A stretch of 64,000 bases of DNA from Candidatus Gastranaerophilales bacterium (GCA_947594025.1 CANQDZ010000002.1:62001-126000), one strand, 5' to 3'; counted from the first letter of the stretch, positions 29,553 through 41,714 are shown. Made by a program: numbers and translations. Notes: a model not told the origin generated them from the sequence alone.

Positions 29553-29909
29553 CTATGAAGCGAATGACATTAAAGCCCTTATTGAACTTGCCGTATCCTT
29601 AACGTCTTGTTCTTCGTTTTCTTCAATAGTTTCATCTAATATTTTAAGAATGTTTTCCTTGTCTTCAAGCGCTAAAAGCTCATTGATGGTTGTCATTACA
29701 ACTTTAGGACTTAAGTCATTTATTCCTTTTCCTTTGTTTGCAACTACAACCTTGAGAGATTCTTCAGAATTTCTTTTTACAAGAGCTTTCGCTGTTAATT
29801 CTCTAACATCATCCATTTCGCAGTTAGTGCCGATTTCATCCAAAATTTTAACTGCTTCGGAATCTTCATGTATAGATAATGCCTCAATTATATTTTTAAT
29901 CTTTTTCAT
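29553..29909 (-). CDS. Small HEAT-like helical protein
   Basis: 118 aa, not recognised. All helical in appearance, with repeated units near IEALSIHEDSEAVKILDEIG, VRELTAKALVKRNSEES and TINELLALEDKENILKILDE spaced about 35-40 residues, similar to short HEAT-type repeats. Acidic, no signal peptide. Its ATG shares one base with the stop of the preceding gene, so the pair is translationally coupled. Confidence 0.6.
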   Translation of the reverse strand: MKKIKNIIEALSIHEDSEAVKILDEIGTNCEMDDVRELTAKALVKRNSEESLKVVVANKGKGINDLSPKVVMTTINELLALEDKENILKILDETIEENEEQDVKDTASSIRALMSFAS

Positions 29910-30349
29910 TACTTAATCCTCAACGAAGAAATTTCTTTACTTAACATTTCGCCAAGCTCACTGACCGGACGTTTTGCTAAACTTGAAACGCTGTATTTTG
30001 AAAAATCGAATTCAACATTTGTTGTATTTAGCATTTCAATGAATTCTTTTGTGCTTGTTTTAACATTTTTTGCAAAATCCGCAATATTTTGTTTTATTGA
30101 TGAAAACCTGTTTATTACGGTTGTCCAAGCGCTTGCTAATAACTTACCTGCATCTTGCATTTTTTGTTTTACGACGTTTGGAGCCTTGCTGCTTGCAGAT
30201 TCAAAAACATCCATTTGCAAAACGGTGCCTTTAAATGTAATACCAAAAGGATTTGTTGAATGACCGTTTGCGTTTATGTTGTTTTCTCTGTTTGTCTTAA
30301 ACTTTTTAAATGCTTCCAAACTTGATCTTAAGGGGGTTATTTTTTGCAT
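29909..30349 (-). CDS. Unrecognised small protein, first of a coupled pair
   Basis: 146 aa. Begins MQKITPLRSSLEAFKKFK, contains TNPFGITFKGTVLQMDVFE near residue 35 and an amphipathic helical region (SSIKQNIADFAKNVKTSTKE). No signal peptide. GAGGT ribosome binding site. Followed at once by the HEAT-like gene. No function assigned. Confidence 0.6.
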   Translation of the reverse strand: MQKITPLRSSLEAFKKFKTNRENNINANGHSTNPFGITFKGTVLQMDVFESASSKAPNVVKQKMQDAGKLLASAWTTVINRFSSIKQNIADFAKNVKTSTKEFIEMLNTTNVEFDFSKYSVSSLAKRPVSELGEMLSKEISSLRIK

Positions 30350-32568: not shown

Positions 32569-33273
32569 TTGGCAGAGAATAACGATATACCAATGAATAT
32601 GGGCAAAAAAATTGCAGAAGCTCTTAAAAATCAAGAGTCTGAAGCTGATTCTTTCGATTCATTATCAATGGAGGAGATGAGAGATCTCATCAGATTAGAC
32701 AGCGAAGAAGATATTATCCCAAAAATTGAAATTGAAGAAGAAGAACCTTTAACTGTCAGAGCGCAAATAAAGCCTGCTTCTAAGAAAACCAAAAAAACCG
32801 AAAAGAACATTATTGAAGATTCAAACATTGAAAAAGTTTCAATTGATGTTCCTTCAACTCCGAAAGAAGAAACTCCGGTTTTAAAAGTAAATGCTAATGA
32901 AATTAATCCGGAACCTGATATGGCTCTTACTTTTGAAGATGAAAAAGAAGAAGTTGAAGAGTTTGAAATGCCTAACAACATCAACGTTTTAAAGAAACTC
33001 ATTGCTCAACTTCCGGCAGGTGTCCCGAAAACCACAGGGGCAATCATCATAAGACAGACCATTGAGGCTTTGGGTATTCCAATGAAAAGTGTTTTACAAG
33101 ACGCTCAAAAGGTTAGAGAATGCCTAAACAGTTCAATAAAAGATTGTGCTTTTACAATTCAAGAATACAAAAGTAACATCAAAAATCTTGAGAGACAAAG
33201 CGCAAGCTACCAAAAACAGTTAGCTAAGCTGAATGACATCATAGAACTTTTTGTTTACAGCGACAAAAAGTAG
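32569..33273 (+). CDS. Unrecognised acidic protein with C-terminal coiled coil
   Basis: 234 aa with a TTG start preceded by AGGGTGA. Acidic and disordered for about the first 130 residues (EEEEPLTVRAQIK, KEETPVLK). An ordered segment near 140-180 (LIAQLPAGVPKTTGAIIIRQTIEALGIPM, in overlapping parts) is followed by a coiled coil (QEYKSNIKNLERQSASYQ). No signal peptide or membrane segment. It ends just before tRNA-Glu. Function unknown. Confidence 0.7.
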   Translation: MAENNDIPMNMGKKIAEALKNQESEADSFDSLSMEEMRDLIRLDSEEDIIPKIEIEEEEPLTVRAQIKPASKKTKKTEKNIIEDSNIEKVSIDVPSTPKEETPVLKVNANEINPEPDMALTFEDEKEEVEEFEMPNNINVLKKLIAQLPAGVPKTTGAIIIRQTIEALGIPMKSVLQDAQKVRECLNSSIKDCAFTIQEYKSNIKNLERQSASYQKQLAKLNDIIELFVYSDKK

Positions 33274-37073: not shown

Positions 37074-37184
37074 GCATTTATATATTTAATTGTAAAGATA
37101 TGTAACAAATATAAATAAAAAAACTAAAGTTTTAGCCCAAAACCGCCGTATAACATGGAGAACCCAAGAGAAGGAGAATTGAAA

Positions 37185-38153
37185 ATGGGCATGGCAGCAT
37201 CTCAAGCTAGGTTTTTAGCTTTGACAGCAAGAAAAAGTAACACAGAATATCATGGACAACAAATTAACCAACAAAGAACGGCTTTGTCCAACCAAAGTGC
37301 TAACTTGTATAACCAAATGATGAATTTGCAAGTTCCAACACCTCCGTCACCCGATAGTTACTATAATATCAGTTACGTATTTCAATCAGGTAACTCAGAT
37401 GATAATGCAAACTATGCAATTACATCATTTTCTAACCTTAACAAAACGGTTTCTGTTGAATATACAACTGATGCAAATATGATGAAGCAGTCTAATACAT
37501 ATTTATCTTCCGAAGACGGCAGAACCTTTATGTTTGGTGATCAAGTTGCTCAACTTGTAGCTGTTAGTAAAAGCTCAAAACCTGAAGTATACGAGGCTGC
37601 AGGCAACATAGATAACTCTGATTGGAACAATGCGGATATATTCTCAATCCAAGTTAGAGACAAGGACGGAAGATATGTCGATAGCGGCTACTATGTAACC
37701 GGAAACTATAAAGATATCGTAATGAGCAACAAAACTTCAGTTGCCGCTTGGGAAATCAAAGAAGGCAGACTATCCAGAAACATAGAATTTAAAGTTAATA
37801 ATTTCGAATTTAACGAAAGCGGCAGACTTGCAAGCTTTACAACAACGGCTGAGGGTTGTCCGAGTGCAAAAATTCCCGCAAACCAAAAATTTGAAGTAGG
37901 CTTCTCTAAAGTTAAAGATGATGATGCTTACGAAGATGCAATGAATGATTATAACTACAAGAAAAATCAATATGACCAAAAATATAATGAATTAAACGCC
38001 GAAACAGAAAAAATTCAAGCAAAAGATAAAAACCTTGAACTTAAACTTAAACAACTTGATACTGAACAAAGTGCAATCCAAACCGAAATGGAAGCAGTTA
38101 AAAACGTTATCAAGAAAAACGTTGAAGATACTTTCAAAACATTCAACGCATAA
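37185..38153 (+). CDS. MGMAASQAR-family protein, long form
   Basis: 322 aa. The ATG at 37185 has an AAGGAG site and aligns exactly with the paralogue at 38315; the earlier ATG (37155) has neither. First 35 residues (GMAASQARFLALTARKSN, GQQINQQRTALS) are nearly identical to the paralogue. The middle (about 50-240) is unrelated to it. The C-terminal 70 residues form a coiled coil (NAETEKIQAKDKNLELKLK, LDTEQSAIQTEMEAVK), again shared. No cleavable signal peptide. The fixed ends look like targeting and assembly parts, as in axial or filament proteins exported by a dedicated apparatus, but this is inference. Family not recognised. Confidence 0.75.
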   Translation: MGMAASQARFLALTARKSNTEYHGQQINQQRTALSNQSANLYNQMMNLQVPTPPSPDSYYNISYVFQSGNSDDNANYAITSFSNLNKTVSVEYTTDANMMKQSNTYLSSEDGRTFMFGDQVAQLVAVSKSSKPEVYEAAGNIDNSDWNNADIFSIQVRDKDGRYVDSGYYVTGNYKDIVMSNKTSVAAWEIKEGRLSRNIEFKVNNFEFNESGRLASFTTTAEGCPSAKIPANQKFEVGFSKVKDDDAYEDAMNDYNYKKNQYDQKYNELNAETEKIQAKDKNLELKLKQLDTEQSAIQTEMEAVKNVIKKNVEDTFKTFNA

Positions 38154-38182
38154 TAAAGATATAAATGACATAACCATGCTTT

Positions 38183-38210
38183 GCCCGACGAAAATCGGGC
38201 TTTTTATTTT
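38183..38210 (+). terminator. Terminator after the long MGMAASQAR gene
   Basis: Stem GCCCGA/TCGGGC, 6-nt loop, strong T-rich tail. Confidence 0.85.
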
Positions 38211-38236
38211 ATTATCATCTTTTTAGATGATGAAAA

Positions 38237-38264
38237 TTGACATATAAAAAAATATCATTATAAC
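38237..38264 (+). promoter_or_regulatory. Promoter of the secreted-protein cluster
   Basis: Perfect TTGACA (38237-38242), 16-bp spacer, TATAAC (38259-38264), 50 bp before the ATG at 38315. It follows a terminator, so the genes from 38315 on form their own unit. Confidence 0.5.
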
Positions 38265-38314
38265 GTATAGTATAAATTCCCCAATATAGTAATTTAAAAT
38301 AGGAGAAATTAATT

Positions 38315-39007
38315 ATGGGTATGGCAGCATCTCAAGCGAGATATTTGGCTCTTACTGCAAGAAAGTCAAATGTTGAATTTCAAGGTCAGCAAATTAACCA
38401 GCAAAGAACAATGCTTTCATGTGAGCAAAGCGAACTGTTCTCTGATTTAACATCACTTAAAAATCCAATGCCTCCAAGTGCGCTTGATTATGAGTATGAT
38501 GTGTATACATTTGATTCAATCAGCGAAGAAGCTGAGTCACTTTCCTACAGAATAAGGGAAGACAGCATTACAACAGACCCAAACACGGGTGTTTCAACAA
38601 TGAAGGTTACATGGACTGAAAATGGTATTGAATATGAAGACACCATCGAAGGTGAATTTTTAGGGACGTCTTCAACGGGCTATACTCAATTAAATATAAC
38701 AAACGGTGGTGAAAAAGCACGTATTCAAACGGGGTACGTTGATAAACTGGCTAAAGGTAAATGGAATGATGAAGAAGCGTTTAACGAAGCTATGGCAAAA
38801 TACAACGCAGACATTGTAAAATATAACAACGAAGTTCAAAGAATTAACTTAAAAGCGGAAGATATTCAGCTTCAAGACAGAACTCTTGAATTAAAACTAA
38901 GAAACCTTGATACTGAACAAAGTGCAATCCAGACCGAGCTTGAATCAGTTAAAAAGGTTATCGAAGACACCGTCAAAACCGTATTTACGACATTCCAATC
39001 ATCATAA
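38315..39007 (+). CDS. MGMAASQAR-family protein, short form
   Basis: 230 aa. N-terminus GMAASQARYLALTARKSN and C-terminal coiled coil (AEDIQLQDRTLELKLR, LDTEQSAIQTELESVKK) match the gene at 37185. The centre (about 45-150) is different and rich in Glu/Asp/Thr. A 26-bp run of DNA in the C-terminal part is identical to the paralogue (38906-38931 versus 38055-38080). AGGAGA ribosome binding site. 16 bp to the next gene. Confidence 0.75.
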   Translation: MGMAASQARYLALTARKSNVEFQGQQINQQRTMLSCEQSELFSDLTSLKNPMPPSALDYEYDVYTFDSISEEAESLSYRIREDSITTDPNTGVSTMKVTWTENGIEYEDTIEGEFLGTSSTGYTQLNITNGGEKARIQTGYVDKLAKGKWNDEEAFNEAMAKYNADIVKYNNEVQRINLKAEDIQLQDRTLELKLRNLDTEQSAIQTELESVKKVIEDTVKTVFTTFQSS

Positions 39008-39023
39008 TAACGTGAGGTAAAAT

Positions 39024-39851
39024 ATGTCATACAAAAATGACCACTACTTAACAATCGTAAATAAATACTCGGGCGCAAGTTCTGCAGCCAAAGCACAACT
39101 GTTTGAAACCTATGACCAATTAAGGGATTTAACAGTGTCAGGCAGTAATGCGACAGGCACAGGCTTTGGTATTGCCGGTGGTTTATTGTGGCAATTGGCG
39201 AGTGTGTTTGCACCAAGTACATTTATGTCTGTAATGGGCGGCGGCAACACAATGAATGTTGCAGGTACGTCTTATTTTTCTCCGTACACCGGTGCTTATT
39301 CTTCTTATGACGGTGCGAACAGTGCATTTGGTATTGGCGCTCTGGGTAATTATCCGGGATTTCCCTCAGGTGCAGCACCTGTTATGTATGGTTTTGGAAG
39401 CGATAAAATAGGATATGCAACGGGCGGTGCTTCAGGCGTAATGACAGGCGGAGCCGTCAGTGCTGCAGGTATTACAGGTTTGAACGCAGCGGCATATGCT
39501 GCAGGTACTGCTTCAGGATTTTCAATAGGACAAAATATAGTTCTTCCTGTTGCAGGGTTAGTTTCAGGCTGGGGCGGTATTTTACAATCAATTGCGCCTT
39601 ATATGGGCGAATACGGTCTCGGCGCTTTGGTTGCAGGTAATTTGCTTCAAGGTACGGGCAGCGCTGCCGTTAACGCATACCAGAATATAACGGGTAATAT
39701 TACGGCTAACGCGGATACAATTTTAGAGCAAAGAGTTGTAAACATTGAAACTGTATGTAAAATGCTTGATGCACAGTCAGATGTTGTAAGACAAATGCTT
39801 AAATCTGACATGGATTCAACTAAAGAAGACGTTAAATCTATAAGTTCATAA
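39024..39851 (+). CDS. Gly/Ala/Ser-rich protein, probably secreted
   Basis: 275 aa, not recognised. Residues 45-220 are Gly/Ala/Ser-rich with hydrophobic stretches (GFGIAGGLLWQLASVFAP, AAGITGLNAAAYAAGTASG, GYGLGALVAGNLL-like). The C-terminal 45 residues form a coiled segment (ILEQRVVNIETVCKML, VVRQMLKSDMDSTKED). No signal peptide. Its amphipathic/hydrophobic make-up resembles pore or translocator proteins of secretion machines; this is only a resemblance. GTGAGGT site; operon member. Confidence 0.68.
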   Translation: MSYKNDHYLTIVNKYSGASSAAKAQLFETYDQLRDLTVSGSNATGTGFGIAGGLLWQLASVFAPSTFMSVMGGGNTMNVAGTSYFSPYTGAYSSYDGANSAFGIGALGNYPGFPSGAAPVMYGFGSDKIGYATGGASGVMTGGAVSAAGITGLNAAAYAAGTASGFSIGQNIVLPVAGLVSGWGGILQSIAPYMGEYGLGALVAGNLLQGTGSAAVNAYQNITGNITANADTILEQRVVNIETVCKMLDAQSDVVRQMLKSDMDSTKEDVKSISS

Positions 39852-39935
39852 AGTTTTGTAACATAATATATATTTTTTGAAATTTCAACATAAATTTTGT
39901 GTTTATTTACATGTAAATTAAAAAAGGTAAATTGA

Positions 39936-40892
39936 GTGGGTGTAAATAACGTTTCATTTGTATCAATAGACGATAAGATTAAAGCATTAGATATGTCTGA
40001 AAATTCTGCTGCTAAATCAGAAACGTCAGATGAACAAAAATATCTGAACGATGCTGAAAAAACAAATGAGAATGATGCCGTTGAGGTAGATTCTTCTGCA
40101 ACGATTACGACATCACACCTTAATATGATGTTAAAGCAGCAAAATGTGCAAAAGCAAATTCGTGAATTAAGAAAAAAAGAAATGGAATTACAGAGAGAAT
40201 TGCGTAGCGCTGAGTCTGACAAAAAAACAAAAATCAGAAAAGAAATTAGAAATATTAATACGCAAATATATAAACTTAACAGCGAATTAAGAACTTCTGC
40301 CGCAAATCAATCTGCTAATCTTCTTCTAACGTCTTTGATGTCGGCATCTTCTTCGACAAGCGGTTCAAGTACGACAACTTCATCAGGCGCCTCATCCGTT
40401 TCCGACGGAAATTTTGATACCATGTTAAGCTATGTACTTCAATATGAAGGCGGATATGTAAATGACCCTTATGACCGAGGCGGTGCTACAAATAAAGGTA
40501 TTACTCAAAGTACATATAATTCATGGTTAAAATCTCAAGGACTTCCCGCAAAAGATGTCAGAAATATAACTGACAGCGAGGTTAAAGAAATTTATTATAA
40601 GAATTATTATGTGGCATCAGGCGCCTCAGAATATTCAAAAACAAATCCTCAGCTTGCTTTTGCTATTTTTGATGCCGCCGTAAACCATGGTGTATATAAG
40701 GCAAAAGATATGCTTAAAAAATCAGGCGGCGACGTAGATAAATTTATGGAAATAAGGAAAAACTACTACATTGCAATTGTTGCAAACAATCCAAGCCAAA
40801 AAAGATTTGCAAAAGGCTGGCAAAACAGGTGGAATAAAGTATATAGCGTCATAAATCCAAACCATCAATATGAAAATTACATTAACGCATAA
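39936..40892 (+). CDS. GH108 (ZliS-type) peptidoglycan muramidase with N-terminal coiled coil
   Basis: 318 aa with a GTG start (AAAAGG site). Residues 1-60 are acidic and disordered, 62-118 a coiled coil (QIRELRKKEMELQREL), 135-158 a Ser/Thr linker. A GH108 domain follows: catalytic Glu171 in YEGGYVNDPYDRGGATNKGIT, DAAVNHG near 246, and the Trp-rich end GWQNRWNKV. GH108 domains cut peptidoglycan and several are linked to secretion or phage exit. No signal peptide, so it probably leaves by a dedicated route, like its neighbours. Same operon. Confidence 0.86.
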   Translation: MGVNNVSFVSIDDKIKALDMSENSAAKSETSDEQKYLNDAEKTNENDAVEVDSSATITTSHLNMMLKQQNVQKQIRELRKKEMELQRELRSAESDKKTKIRKEIRNINTQIYKLNSELRTSAANQSANLLLTSLMSASSSTSGSSTTTSSGASSVSDGNFDTMLSYVLQYEGGYVNDPYDRGGATNKGITQSTYNSWLKSQGLPAKDVRNITDSEVKEIYYKNYYVASGASEYSKTNPQLAFAIFDAAVNHGVYKAKDMLKKSGGDVDKFMEIRKNYYIAIVANNPSQKRFAKGWQNRWNKVYSVINPNHQYENYINA

Positions 40893-40898
40893 TGTTAA

Positions 40899-40907
40899 TG
40901 ATATAAT
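40899..40907 (+). promoter_or_regulatory. Extended -10 of the ABC ATPase gene (leaderless)
   Basis: TGA-TATAAT ends at 40907, exactly 7 nt before the ATG at 40914. No ribosome binding site; lies in the 21-bp gap after the muramidase gene. Confidence 0.45.
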
Positions 40908-40913
40908 TTGTTT

Positions 40914-41714
40914 ATGGTTAATTTGAATGTAAAATGCCCTGCAATAAAAATAAAAGACGCAAATGTTTATTTAGACGGCGTTCAAATTTTGCATGATATA
41001 AATTTTGAGATTGAGCAGGGACAAAAATGTTTTATCTTAGGGGCAAACGGTGCAGGCAAGACGACACTTGTAAAAACCATATTGGGATATGTTTGGCCAA
41101 AATGGGGCGCTTGTGTTGAAATTTTAGGTCAAAGATTTGGCAAAACCGACCTCAACGAACTCAGAAAAAATATTGCATGGGTAAGTCCGTTTATCCATAA
41201 AATGGCAGGTATAAATAACGGTGTTGATATGGTTTTATCCGGTCGTGAAGGTACGCTCGGCTACTATCAACAAGCAAGTAATGATGAAATCGATGAGGTT
41301 GCAAACCTTTTAGAAAGTCTTGACGCAATTCATCTTGCAAATAAAAATTTTGCAGACATGTCATCAGGAGAGCAAGTTAAAATATTAATCGCAAGAGCGC
41401 TGTTTAATAACCCTAAACTTATGATTTTAGATGAACCTACTGCATATTTGGATATTGCACAAAAAGAATTTTTGCTCAAAACCGTTGATAAAATCGCAAA
41501 AGAAAACAAAAATCTAACAATAATTTTCATATCTCAAAATATAAGCGATATTTTACCCGTTTTTGATTACGGTATGATACTAAAAGACGGAAGAATACAT
41601 AAATACGGCAAAAGAGAAGATGTTTTAACGGAAAAGAATTTAAAAGATATATTTAATGTAGATGTTAAATTGGTTAAAACTGAAAACGGAAGACTTTGGA
41701 GTGTAGTCGAATAA
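40914..41714 (+). CDS. ABC transporter ATP-binding protein (ModF/YlmA-like)
   Basis: 266 aa, complete ATPase: Walker A LGANGAGKTT, signature MSSGEQVKILIARAL, Walker B LMILDEP, a switch-region IFISQNI in place of the usual His, and no permease fusion. The Q-loop region reads WVSPFIHKMAG, without an obvious Gln. It resembles the single-domain YlmA/PhrA group. Start ATG 40914 is chosen; a TTG six bases earlier is open. Whether it powers export of the neighbouring proteins is unknown. No permease gene is adjacent. Confidence 0.85.
   Translation: MVNLNVKCPAIKIKDANVYLDGVQILHDINFEIEQGQKCFILGANGAGKTTLVKTILGYVWPKWGACVEILGQRFGKTDLNELRKNIAWVSPFIHKMAGINNGVDMVLSGREGTLGYYQQASNDEIDEVANLLESLDAIHLANKNFADMSSGEQVKILIARALFNNPKLMILDEPTAYLDIAQKEFLLKTVDKIAKENKNLTIIFISQNISDILPVFDYGMILKDGRIHKYGKREDVLTEKNLKDIFNVDVKLVKTENGRLWSVVE

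What the first reader, a model, noticed from the sequence alone, without database searches (positions are those of the whole stretch)
37185..41714. Possible new secretion locus: MGMAASQAR proteins, a hydrophobic Gly-rich protein, a GH108 muramidase and an ABC ATPase
Seen: two paralogues with identical N-terminal ~35 residues and C-terminal coiled coils but unrelated centres, a Gly/Ala-rich hydrophobic protein, a muramidase and an ATPase, in tight succession. None of the four non-ATPase proteins has a signal peptide. Known: GH108/ZliS enzymes open peptidoglycan for secretion machines. Fixed termini around a variable middle are typical of axial, filament or needle subunits exported by an N-terminal signal. 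Inference: the cluster encodes substrates and a wall-opening enzyme of an export or surface-filament system.
Basis: partly seen in the sequence, partly recalled or inferred. Interest (0 to 1): 0.75.

Follow-up and report, generated by a model that had tools for sequence, protein, structure and literature searches.

The report
Cargo candidates of an overlooked flagellum-like exporter
Two odd gut-bacterium proteins belong to a large, unnamed family of helical-hairpin proteins that occurs only in bacteria carrying a second, flagellin-free flagellum-like export machine, which earlier papers took for an incomplete flagellum; secretion of the proteins is likely but not shown.

Summary
The genes exist, but the locus is not one unit. 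Window 37185-39851 holds two paralogues (here FAM) and a Gly-rich protein (GLY). They belong to a conserved module FAM - GLY - ~90-aa protein - ~108-aa hairpin found in Candidatus Gastranaerophilales and related orders of non-photosynthetic Cyanobacteriota. The GH108 muramidase and the ABC ATPase are adjacent only in the same genus. FAM has 5 members in this genome and more in relatives. In other orders FAM is a bare 109-aa helical hairpin; in this order unrelated domains sit at the hairpin turn. FAM and GLY co-occur with one FlhA clade, that of a second T3SS (FliE/F/H, FlhA/B, FliO/P/Q/R, a FliN/SctQ protein; rod and hook genes in relatives). It is distinct from the true flagellar system of flagellated relatives. 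This genome has only the second system and no flagellin. In 40 genomes of seven genera GLY lies 6-14 kb from its FliG-position gene. Best reading: these proteins are late export substrates or outer subunits of this machine, hairpin helices assembling, inserted domains facing out. Secretion is not shown. No sequence match to flagellin, rod or hook proteins, needles or any Pfam family was found.

The parts
37185..38153 (+). FAM-a, 322 aa: conserved N-terminal helix, variable centre, conserved C-terminal helix
   Evidence: an in-frame ATG at 37155 exists but the conserved start is 37185
38183..38200 (+). intrinsic terminator-like stem with T-rich tail after FAM-a
   Evidence: consensus match only; 5 found against 3.9 expected in the region
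38315..39007 (+). FAM-b, 230 aa, paralogue with a shorter, unrelated centre
   Evidence: model with helices 2-48 and 153-229
39024..39851 (+). GLY, 275 aa, Gly/Ala-rich; constant partner of FAM
   Evidence: no Pfam, NCBIfam or PHROG family over cut-off
39936..40892 (+). GH108 muramidase with a coiled-coil N-terminal region; neighbour only within the genus
40908..41714 (+). ABC-type ATPase, no transmembrane part; neighbour only within the genus
32569..33273 (+). 234-aa protein of unknown family whose homologues lie between the hairpin gene and the T3SS-2 operon in several relatives
   Evidence: no Pfam family over cut-off

Best explanation
The two paralogues and the Gly-rich protein are export substrates or outer structural subunits of a second, flagellin-free, flagellum-like type III secretion system (T3SS-2). 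Proposed mechanism: FAM proteins leave the cell unfolded through T3SS-2 without a Sec signal. Their N- and C-terminal helices then pair into a hairpin that packs with other subunits, by analogy with D0/D1 of flagellar axial proteins. The insert at the hairpin turn, different in every paralogue, is displayed outward as a binding or decoy surface. GLY, the ~90-aa protein and the bare ~108-aa hairpin are constant partners, for example base, cap, adaptor or chaperone. Shown: the family, the module, the bare-hairpin form in other orders, the second T3SS, co-distribution and partial physical linkage. Inferred: export, assembly and outward display.
For: Co-distribution: over 240 genomes of the class GLY and the FliG-position protein of T3SS-2 are both present in 155, neither in 77, and disagree in 8. 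Outside the order three families have FAM, GLY and the T3SS-2 FlhA together; the checked genomes of five other families have none of them, even where another FlhA type is present. Physical linkage: GLY 6-14 kb from the FliG-position gene in 40 genomes of seven genera; examples L067-L072, L143, L144, L146. T3SS-2 is a distinct system: its FlhA is one clade with support 100, apart from the flagellar FlhA of the same genomes. The own genome has T3SS-2 only and no flagellin. No Sec-like signal in FAM or GLY. Hairpin architecture with insertion at the turn.
Against: No secretion or localisation data. The co-distribution follows clades, so it is not independent evidence genome by genome, and the synteny may be one ancestral arrangement. 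In this genome and many others FAM-GLY and T3SS-2 lie on different contigs. FAM and the hairpin show no profile similarity to FliE, rod, hook, FliJ or flagellin. G136 and G234 keep FAM genes while GLY and the full T3SS-2 FlhA are not found, though broken contigs may explain that. Most FAM genes are scattered over the genome.
Confidence: 0.5

Rival explanations
1. The proteins are cytoplasmic or envelope-associated coiled-coil scaffold proteins unrelated to export; they share clades with T3SS-2 only by common descent.
For: Most FAM genes are scattered and not next to T3SS-2 genes; profile hits are generic coiled coils; G136 and G234 retain FAM without a found T3SS-2 FlhA.
Against: Exact clade match with T3SS-2 rather than with other FlhA types or the class as a whole; conserved synteny in seven genera; a hypervariable insert between fixed helices is unusual for a cytosolic scaffold (inference).
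Confidence: 0.25
2. FAM proteins are soluble effectors of T3SS-2: the shared ends are a secretion and chaperone-binding frame and each variable centre is a different activity delivered to other cells.
For: Variable centres, several to many scattered copies per genome, sizes from 106 to 750 aa in the fetched set.
Against: No enzyme or toxin domain in 24 scanned members; the form in other orders has no centre at all, so the hairpin itself must have a function; the C-terminal helix is as conserved as the N-terminal one.
Confidence: 0.15
3. The window locus is itself a secretion cassette: GH108 opens the wall and the ABC ATPase powers export of the FAM proteins.
For: Gene order in the window and in the one same-genus genome seen; no signal peptides.
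Against: GH108 and the ABC homologue are absent from the neighbourhood of FAM-GLY in all other loci examined. The ATPase has no membrane domain and is not closest to type I exporters. A terminator and gaps separate the genes.
Confidence: 0.05
4. T3SS-2 is only a decaying flagellum and FAM has nothing to do with it.
For: The genomes with T3SS-2 alone lack flagellin, and two papers describe incomplete flagellar gene sets.
Against: Flagellin-bearing relatives mostly carry both sets. The second FlhA forms its own clade and keeps full length in seven families of the order and three families outside it.
Confidence: 0.05

Closest known systems
Bacterial flagellum (export gate, rod, hook, filament)
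   Same: T3SS-2 uses FliE, FliF, FliH, FlhA, FlhB, FliO/P/Q/R homologues; in relatives FlgB/C/G/E/D, FliK and FliJ homologues. FAM has the axial-protein layout of paired terminal helices around a variable centre.
   Different: No flagellin in this genome. FlhA and FliF score below the curated flagellar cut-offs. The protein at the FliG position has no FliG match. FAM has no detectable similarity to flagellin, rod or hook proteins.
Non-flagellar T3SS (injectisome; needle SctF, SctV, SctQ)
   Same: A single FliN/SctQ-type C-ring protein and a small hairpin protein as a possible subunit.
   Different: FliF-type ring with the FliF C-terminal domain rather than SctJ; SctV score below cut-off; no needle chain among the structure-database matches. 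Secretin not tested.
Myxococcales-type intermediate NF-T3SS (Abby and Rocha 2012, PMC3459982)
   Same: Described as a form that lacks elements essential for motility and was argued to act in protein translocation.
   Different: Direct comparison was not made here; T3SS-2 keeps rod and hook genes in relatives.
GH108 muramidases, including the holin-associated subfamily and TtsA-type secretion-linked enzymes (the latter from memory)
   Same: The window protein carries a clear GH108 domain.
   Different: 52.9 bits against a cut-off of 240 for the holin-associated equivalog; adjacency to FAM-GLY only within the genus.

Membership tests
Flagellum (for T3SS-2) | FlhA, FlhB, FliP, FliQ, FliR export gate | tested here: met
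   FlhA below the equivalog cut-off (680.6 against 772.1), FliP and FliR above theirs
Flagellum (for T3SS-2) | flagellin filament protein | tested here: not met
   no PF00669 match in the own genome
Flagellum (for T3SS-2) | rod and hook proteins | tested here: inconclusive
   two Flg_bbr_C matches in the own genome, their positions not shown; rod and hook homologues identified in relatives
Flagellum (for T3SS-2) | FliG switch protein | tested here: not met
   the protein at the FliG position has no FliG match
Flagellum (for T3SS-2) | MotAB stator, L and P rings | not tested
   no search left; reported missing L/P rings concern another genome of the order
Injectisome (NF-T3SS) | SctJ-type inner ring and SctV above curated cut-offs | tested here: not met
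   SctJ 29 against 162 on a protein cut at a locus end; SctV 581 against 692
Injectisome (NF-T3SS) | needle SctF homologue | tested here: not met
   no needle match for the hairpins in Pfam or solved structures
Injectisome (NF-T3SS) | secretin | not tested
Flagellin or other flagellar axial protein (for FAM) | sequence or profile similarity | tested here: not met
   no Pfam match; hhalign probabilities below 1 percent, with few sequences for some partners
Flagellin or other flagellar axial protein (for FAM) | terminal helices around a variable centre | tested here: met
   similarity of layout, not of descent
T3SS substrate (for FAM and GLY) | export dependent on the T3SS | not testable with these tools
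   needs proteomics or genetics
GH108 | PF05838 over cut-off | tested here: met
   92.6 bits against 21.2

The most novel reading that the evidence does not exclude
Non-photosynthetic Cyanobacteriota carry an undescribed class of flagellum-related surface machine: a rod-hook export apparatus without flagellin. Its outer part is built from a new helical-hairpin protein family in which unrelated domains were repeatedly inserted at the hairpin turn, giving each gut species its own set of displayed surfaces.
Probability: 0.35. Interest if true: 0.9.

Novelty: new variant of a known kind. Interest (0 to 1): 0.7.

Why it matters
Gastranaerophilales are animal-gut relatives of cyanobacteria known mainly from metagenomes; members without a full flagellum were thought to have lost it. 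An intact second T3SS with its own substrate-like family would change that reading and give a concrete candidate for how these bacteria touch their host or neighbours. It would also offer a further case of a flagellum-related machine put to another use, and of an axial-type hairpin family evolving variable inserts, separate from flagellin. Three gene families without a Pfam or NCBIfam assignment (FAM, GLY, the ~90-aa protein) get a testable role.

Tried and rejected
Database families for FAM, GLY, hairpin and the 90-aa protein: none over cut-off. Solved-structure sequence search: nothing for FAM, one insignificant hit for GLY, only generic coiled-coil-type hits for the hairpins. Foldseek with the FAM-b model: nothing below 0.001; V/A-ATPase central-stalk subunits at 0.039 and 0.057 lead the list and are read as generic long-helix similarity. 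AlphaFold2 of GLY with 39 sequences: pLDDT 39, not used. FAM-b was modelled from one sequence because I sent that job without an alignment. Profile comparison with FliE, FlgB/C/E, FliJ, flagellin: no homology. Toxin or enzyme domains in FAM centres: none. GLY in viral contigs and plasmids: none; the one 'phage' hit is probably a mislabelled bacterial contig. An N-terminal SFKG-type motif as a shared export signal: crude test showed no enrichment. Joint absence of GLY and the T3SS-2 FlhA in G136 and G234 was not used as support because contigs end inside FAM genes there.

Full report
Naming used here: FAM = the MG[ML]AASQAR...FKTF family; GLY = the Gly/Ala-rich ~275-aa family; hairpin = the ~108-aa protein related to FAM; T3SS-2 = the second type III secretion system described below. 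Handles G..., L... are session handles.

The observation. All five ORFs exist. The paralogues share 30 of the first 35 residues (not all 35) and 37 of 78 at the C-terminus; their centres are unrelated by shuffle test. None of the four non-ATPase proteins has a hydrophobic N-terminus. An intrinsic terminator-like site stands between the first and second gene, so the locus is not one tight operon. GH108 is clear. The window lies in a 1.51-Mb genome, 98.9% complete. Of 80 related loci from named records, those that carry a taxonomic name are Candidatus Gastranaerophilales, Melainabacteria or 'Cyanobacteria' MAGs; the rest are unnamed bacteria. The placement of the window itself in Gastranaerophilales is inferred from these relatives.

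The family. The own genome has five FAM members: two in the window, L009:7678-8316 (212 aa), L010:8480-9151 (223 aa) and the 106-aa hairpin L011:985-1305. 57 of 59 relatives have the family, with up to 33 matched pieces in one genome (a gene often gives two pieces). GLY lies in the same fetched stretch as FAM in 38 of 80 loci, normally right behind it, and often a ~90-aa protein and the hairpin follow. GLY is the best conserved (48-84% identity to the window copy). In this genome the 90-aa and hairpin genes sit together on another contig (L011:1308-1577 and 985-1305). The GH108 gene and a close homologue of the ABC ATPase accompany the module only in the same genus.

The core is a hairpin. In other orders of the class, FAM proteins next to GLY are 109 aa long: the N-terminal ~48 residues, a turn of the DPDS/DPES kind, and the C-terminal ~55 residues of the long forms. 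Profile comparison joins this short FAM and the hairpin over the full length (E 1.3e-41). The single-sequence model of FAM-b has a helix 2-48, a beta-rich centre and a helix 153-229; helix confidence is good, the centre poor. The simplest reading is that the variable centres are insertions at the hairpin turn in the Gastranaerophilales lineage; the direction is inferred from distribution, not from a rooted tree.

The export system. FlhA-type proteins occur in 57 of 59 relatives, in two full-length types: one strongest to FHIPEP (E about 1e-260), found in most flagellin-bearing genomes, and one at E about 1e-200 to 1e-222 in nearly all. FliP and FlhB also come in two copies in many flagellin-bearing genomes. 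The own genome has one FlhA (second type), one FliP, one FlhB and no flagellin. Its set: FliE, FliF-like, an unrecognised protein at the FliG position, FliH and FlhA in one operon with a lytic transglycosylase beside FliE (L065/L066), and a FliN/SctQ-like protein with FliO, FliP, FliQ, FliR in another (L091). FlhA scores below both the flagellar and the injectisome curated cut-offs. In other families of the order the operon also holds two FlgG-like proteins and FlgC; G046 has FlgE, FlgD, FliK and FliJ together with a FlhA-C-like protein. A tree of 39 FlhA proteins puts the T3SS-2 FlhA in one clade (support 100) apart from the flagellar FlhA of the same order (quick method, midpoint root, long branches flagged).

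The link. Over 240 genomes of the class GLY and the FliG-position protein of T3SS-2 are both present in 155, neither in 77, and disagree in 8. Disagreements include weak or paralogous hits and incomplete assemblies. Outside the order three families have both, and the checked genomes of five other families have neither, even those with another FlhA type. These counts follow clades and are not independent, so the Fisher values should not be read as probabilities. Physically, GLY and the FliG-position gene share a contig in at least 42 genomes of seven genera, 40 of them within 14 kb (positions copied by hand from the printed tables, which are cut, so more may exist). Examples: L067-L072, L143, L144, L146.

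Prior knowledge. Di Rienzi et al. [quoted passage not shown] their list of flagellum-related genes for ACD20 includes two flhA. Soo et al. 2014 (PMC4040986) wrote that most Gastranaerophilales genomes have a gene subset that would not make a functional flagellum. No paper in the held library was found that describes a second T3SS here; most subscription papers are missing from that library.

Judgement. FAM/GLY as T3SS-2 late substrates or outer subunits is the best-supported mechanism (0.5). The chief doubt is that the link rests on co-distribution and what may be one ancestral synteny. Cytosolic scaffold (0.25) and effector (0.15) readings remain open.

Noticed in passing
L101:6026-7477, L103:6724-8202, L209:9538-11019: A ~483-500-aa protein with only the cytoplasmic C-terminal part of FlhA (FHIPEP positions ~321-655) occurs in most relatives; in G046 it lies beside fliJ, fliK, flgD and flgE homologues. 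It was not found in the own genome.
   Followed up: partly
L229 (MW495066.1, 118059-149000): The record 'Microcystis phage MaAM05' carries a short FAM, GLY and a 96-aa protein amid smc, scpAB, secDF and glyS; it looks like a bacterial contig of this class rather than a phage.
   Followed up: partly
L052:10293-12542, L144:7892-9634: A divergent FAM branch (MGL[AS]ASQARLLSIT[SA]R...) of 580-750 aa occurs near ordinary FAM genes.
   Followed up: no
L125:9983-11062: A FAM gene is convergent with a flagellar operon that looks like flgL, flgK, flgN, flgI, flgH, flgG by sequence in a flagellated relative; seen in one locus only.
   Followed up: partly
L218-L220, L224, L225, L227: Other families of the class (f10-f12) have an FlhA type that groups next to the T3SS-2 clade, without FAM or GLY.
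   Followed up: partly
window 29909-30349: N-terminal stretch ending in a FKG motif, similar to N-termini such as 'INSINN...SFKG' on otherwise different proteins in relatives; a crude test showed no enrichment.
   Followed up: partly
L091:4715-5200: The FliQ of T3SS-2 is 161 aa long, while the FliQ profile covers only the first ~80 residues; the extension is unexplained.
   Followed up: no
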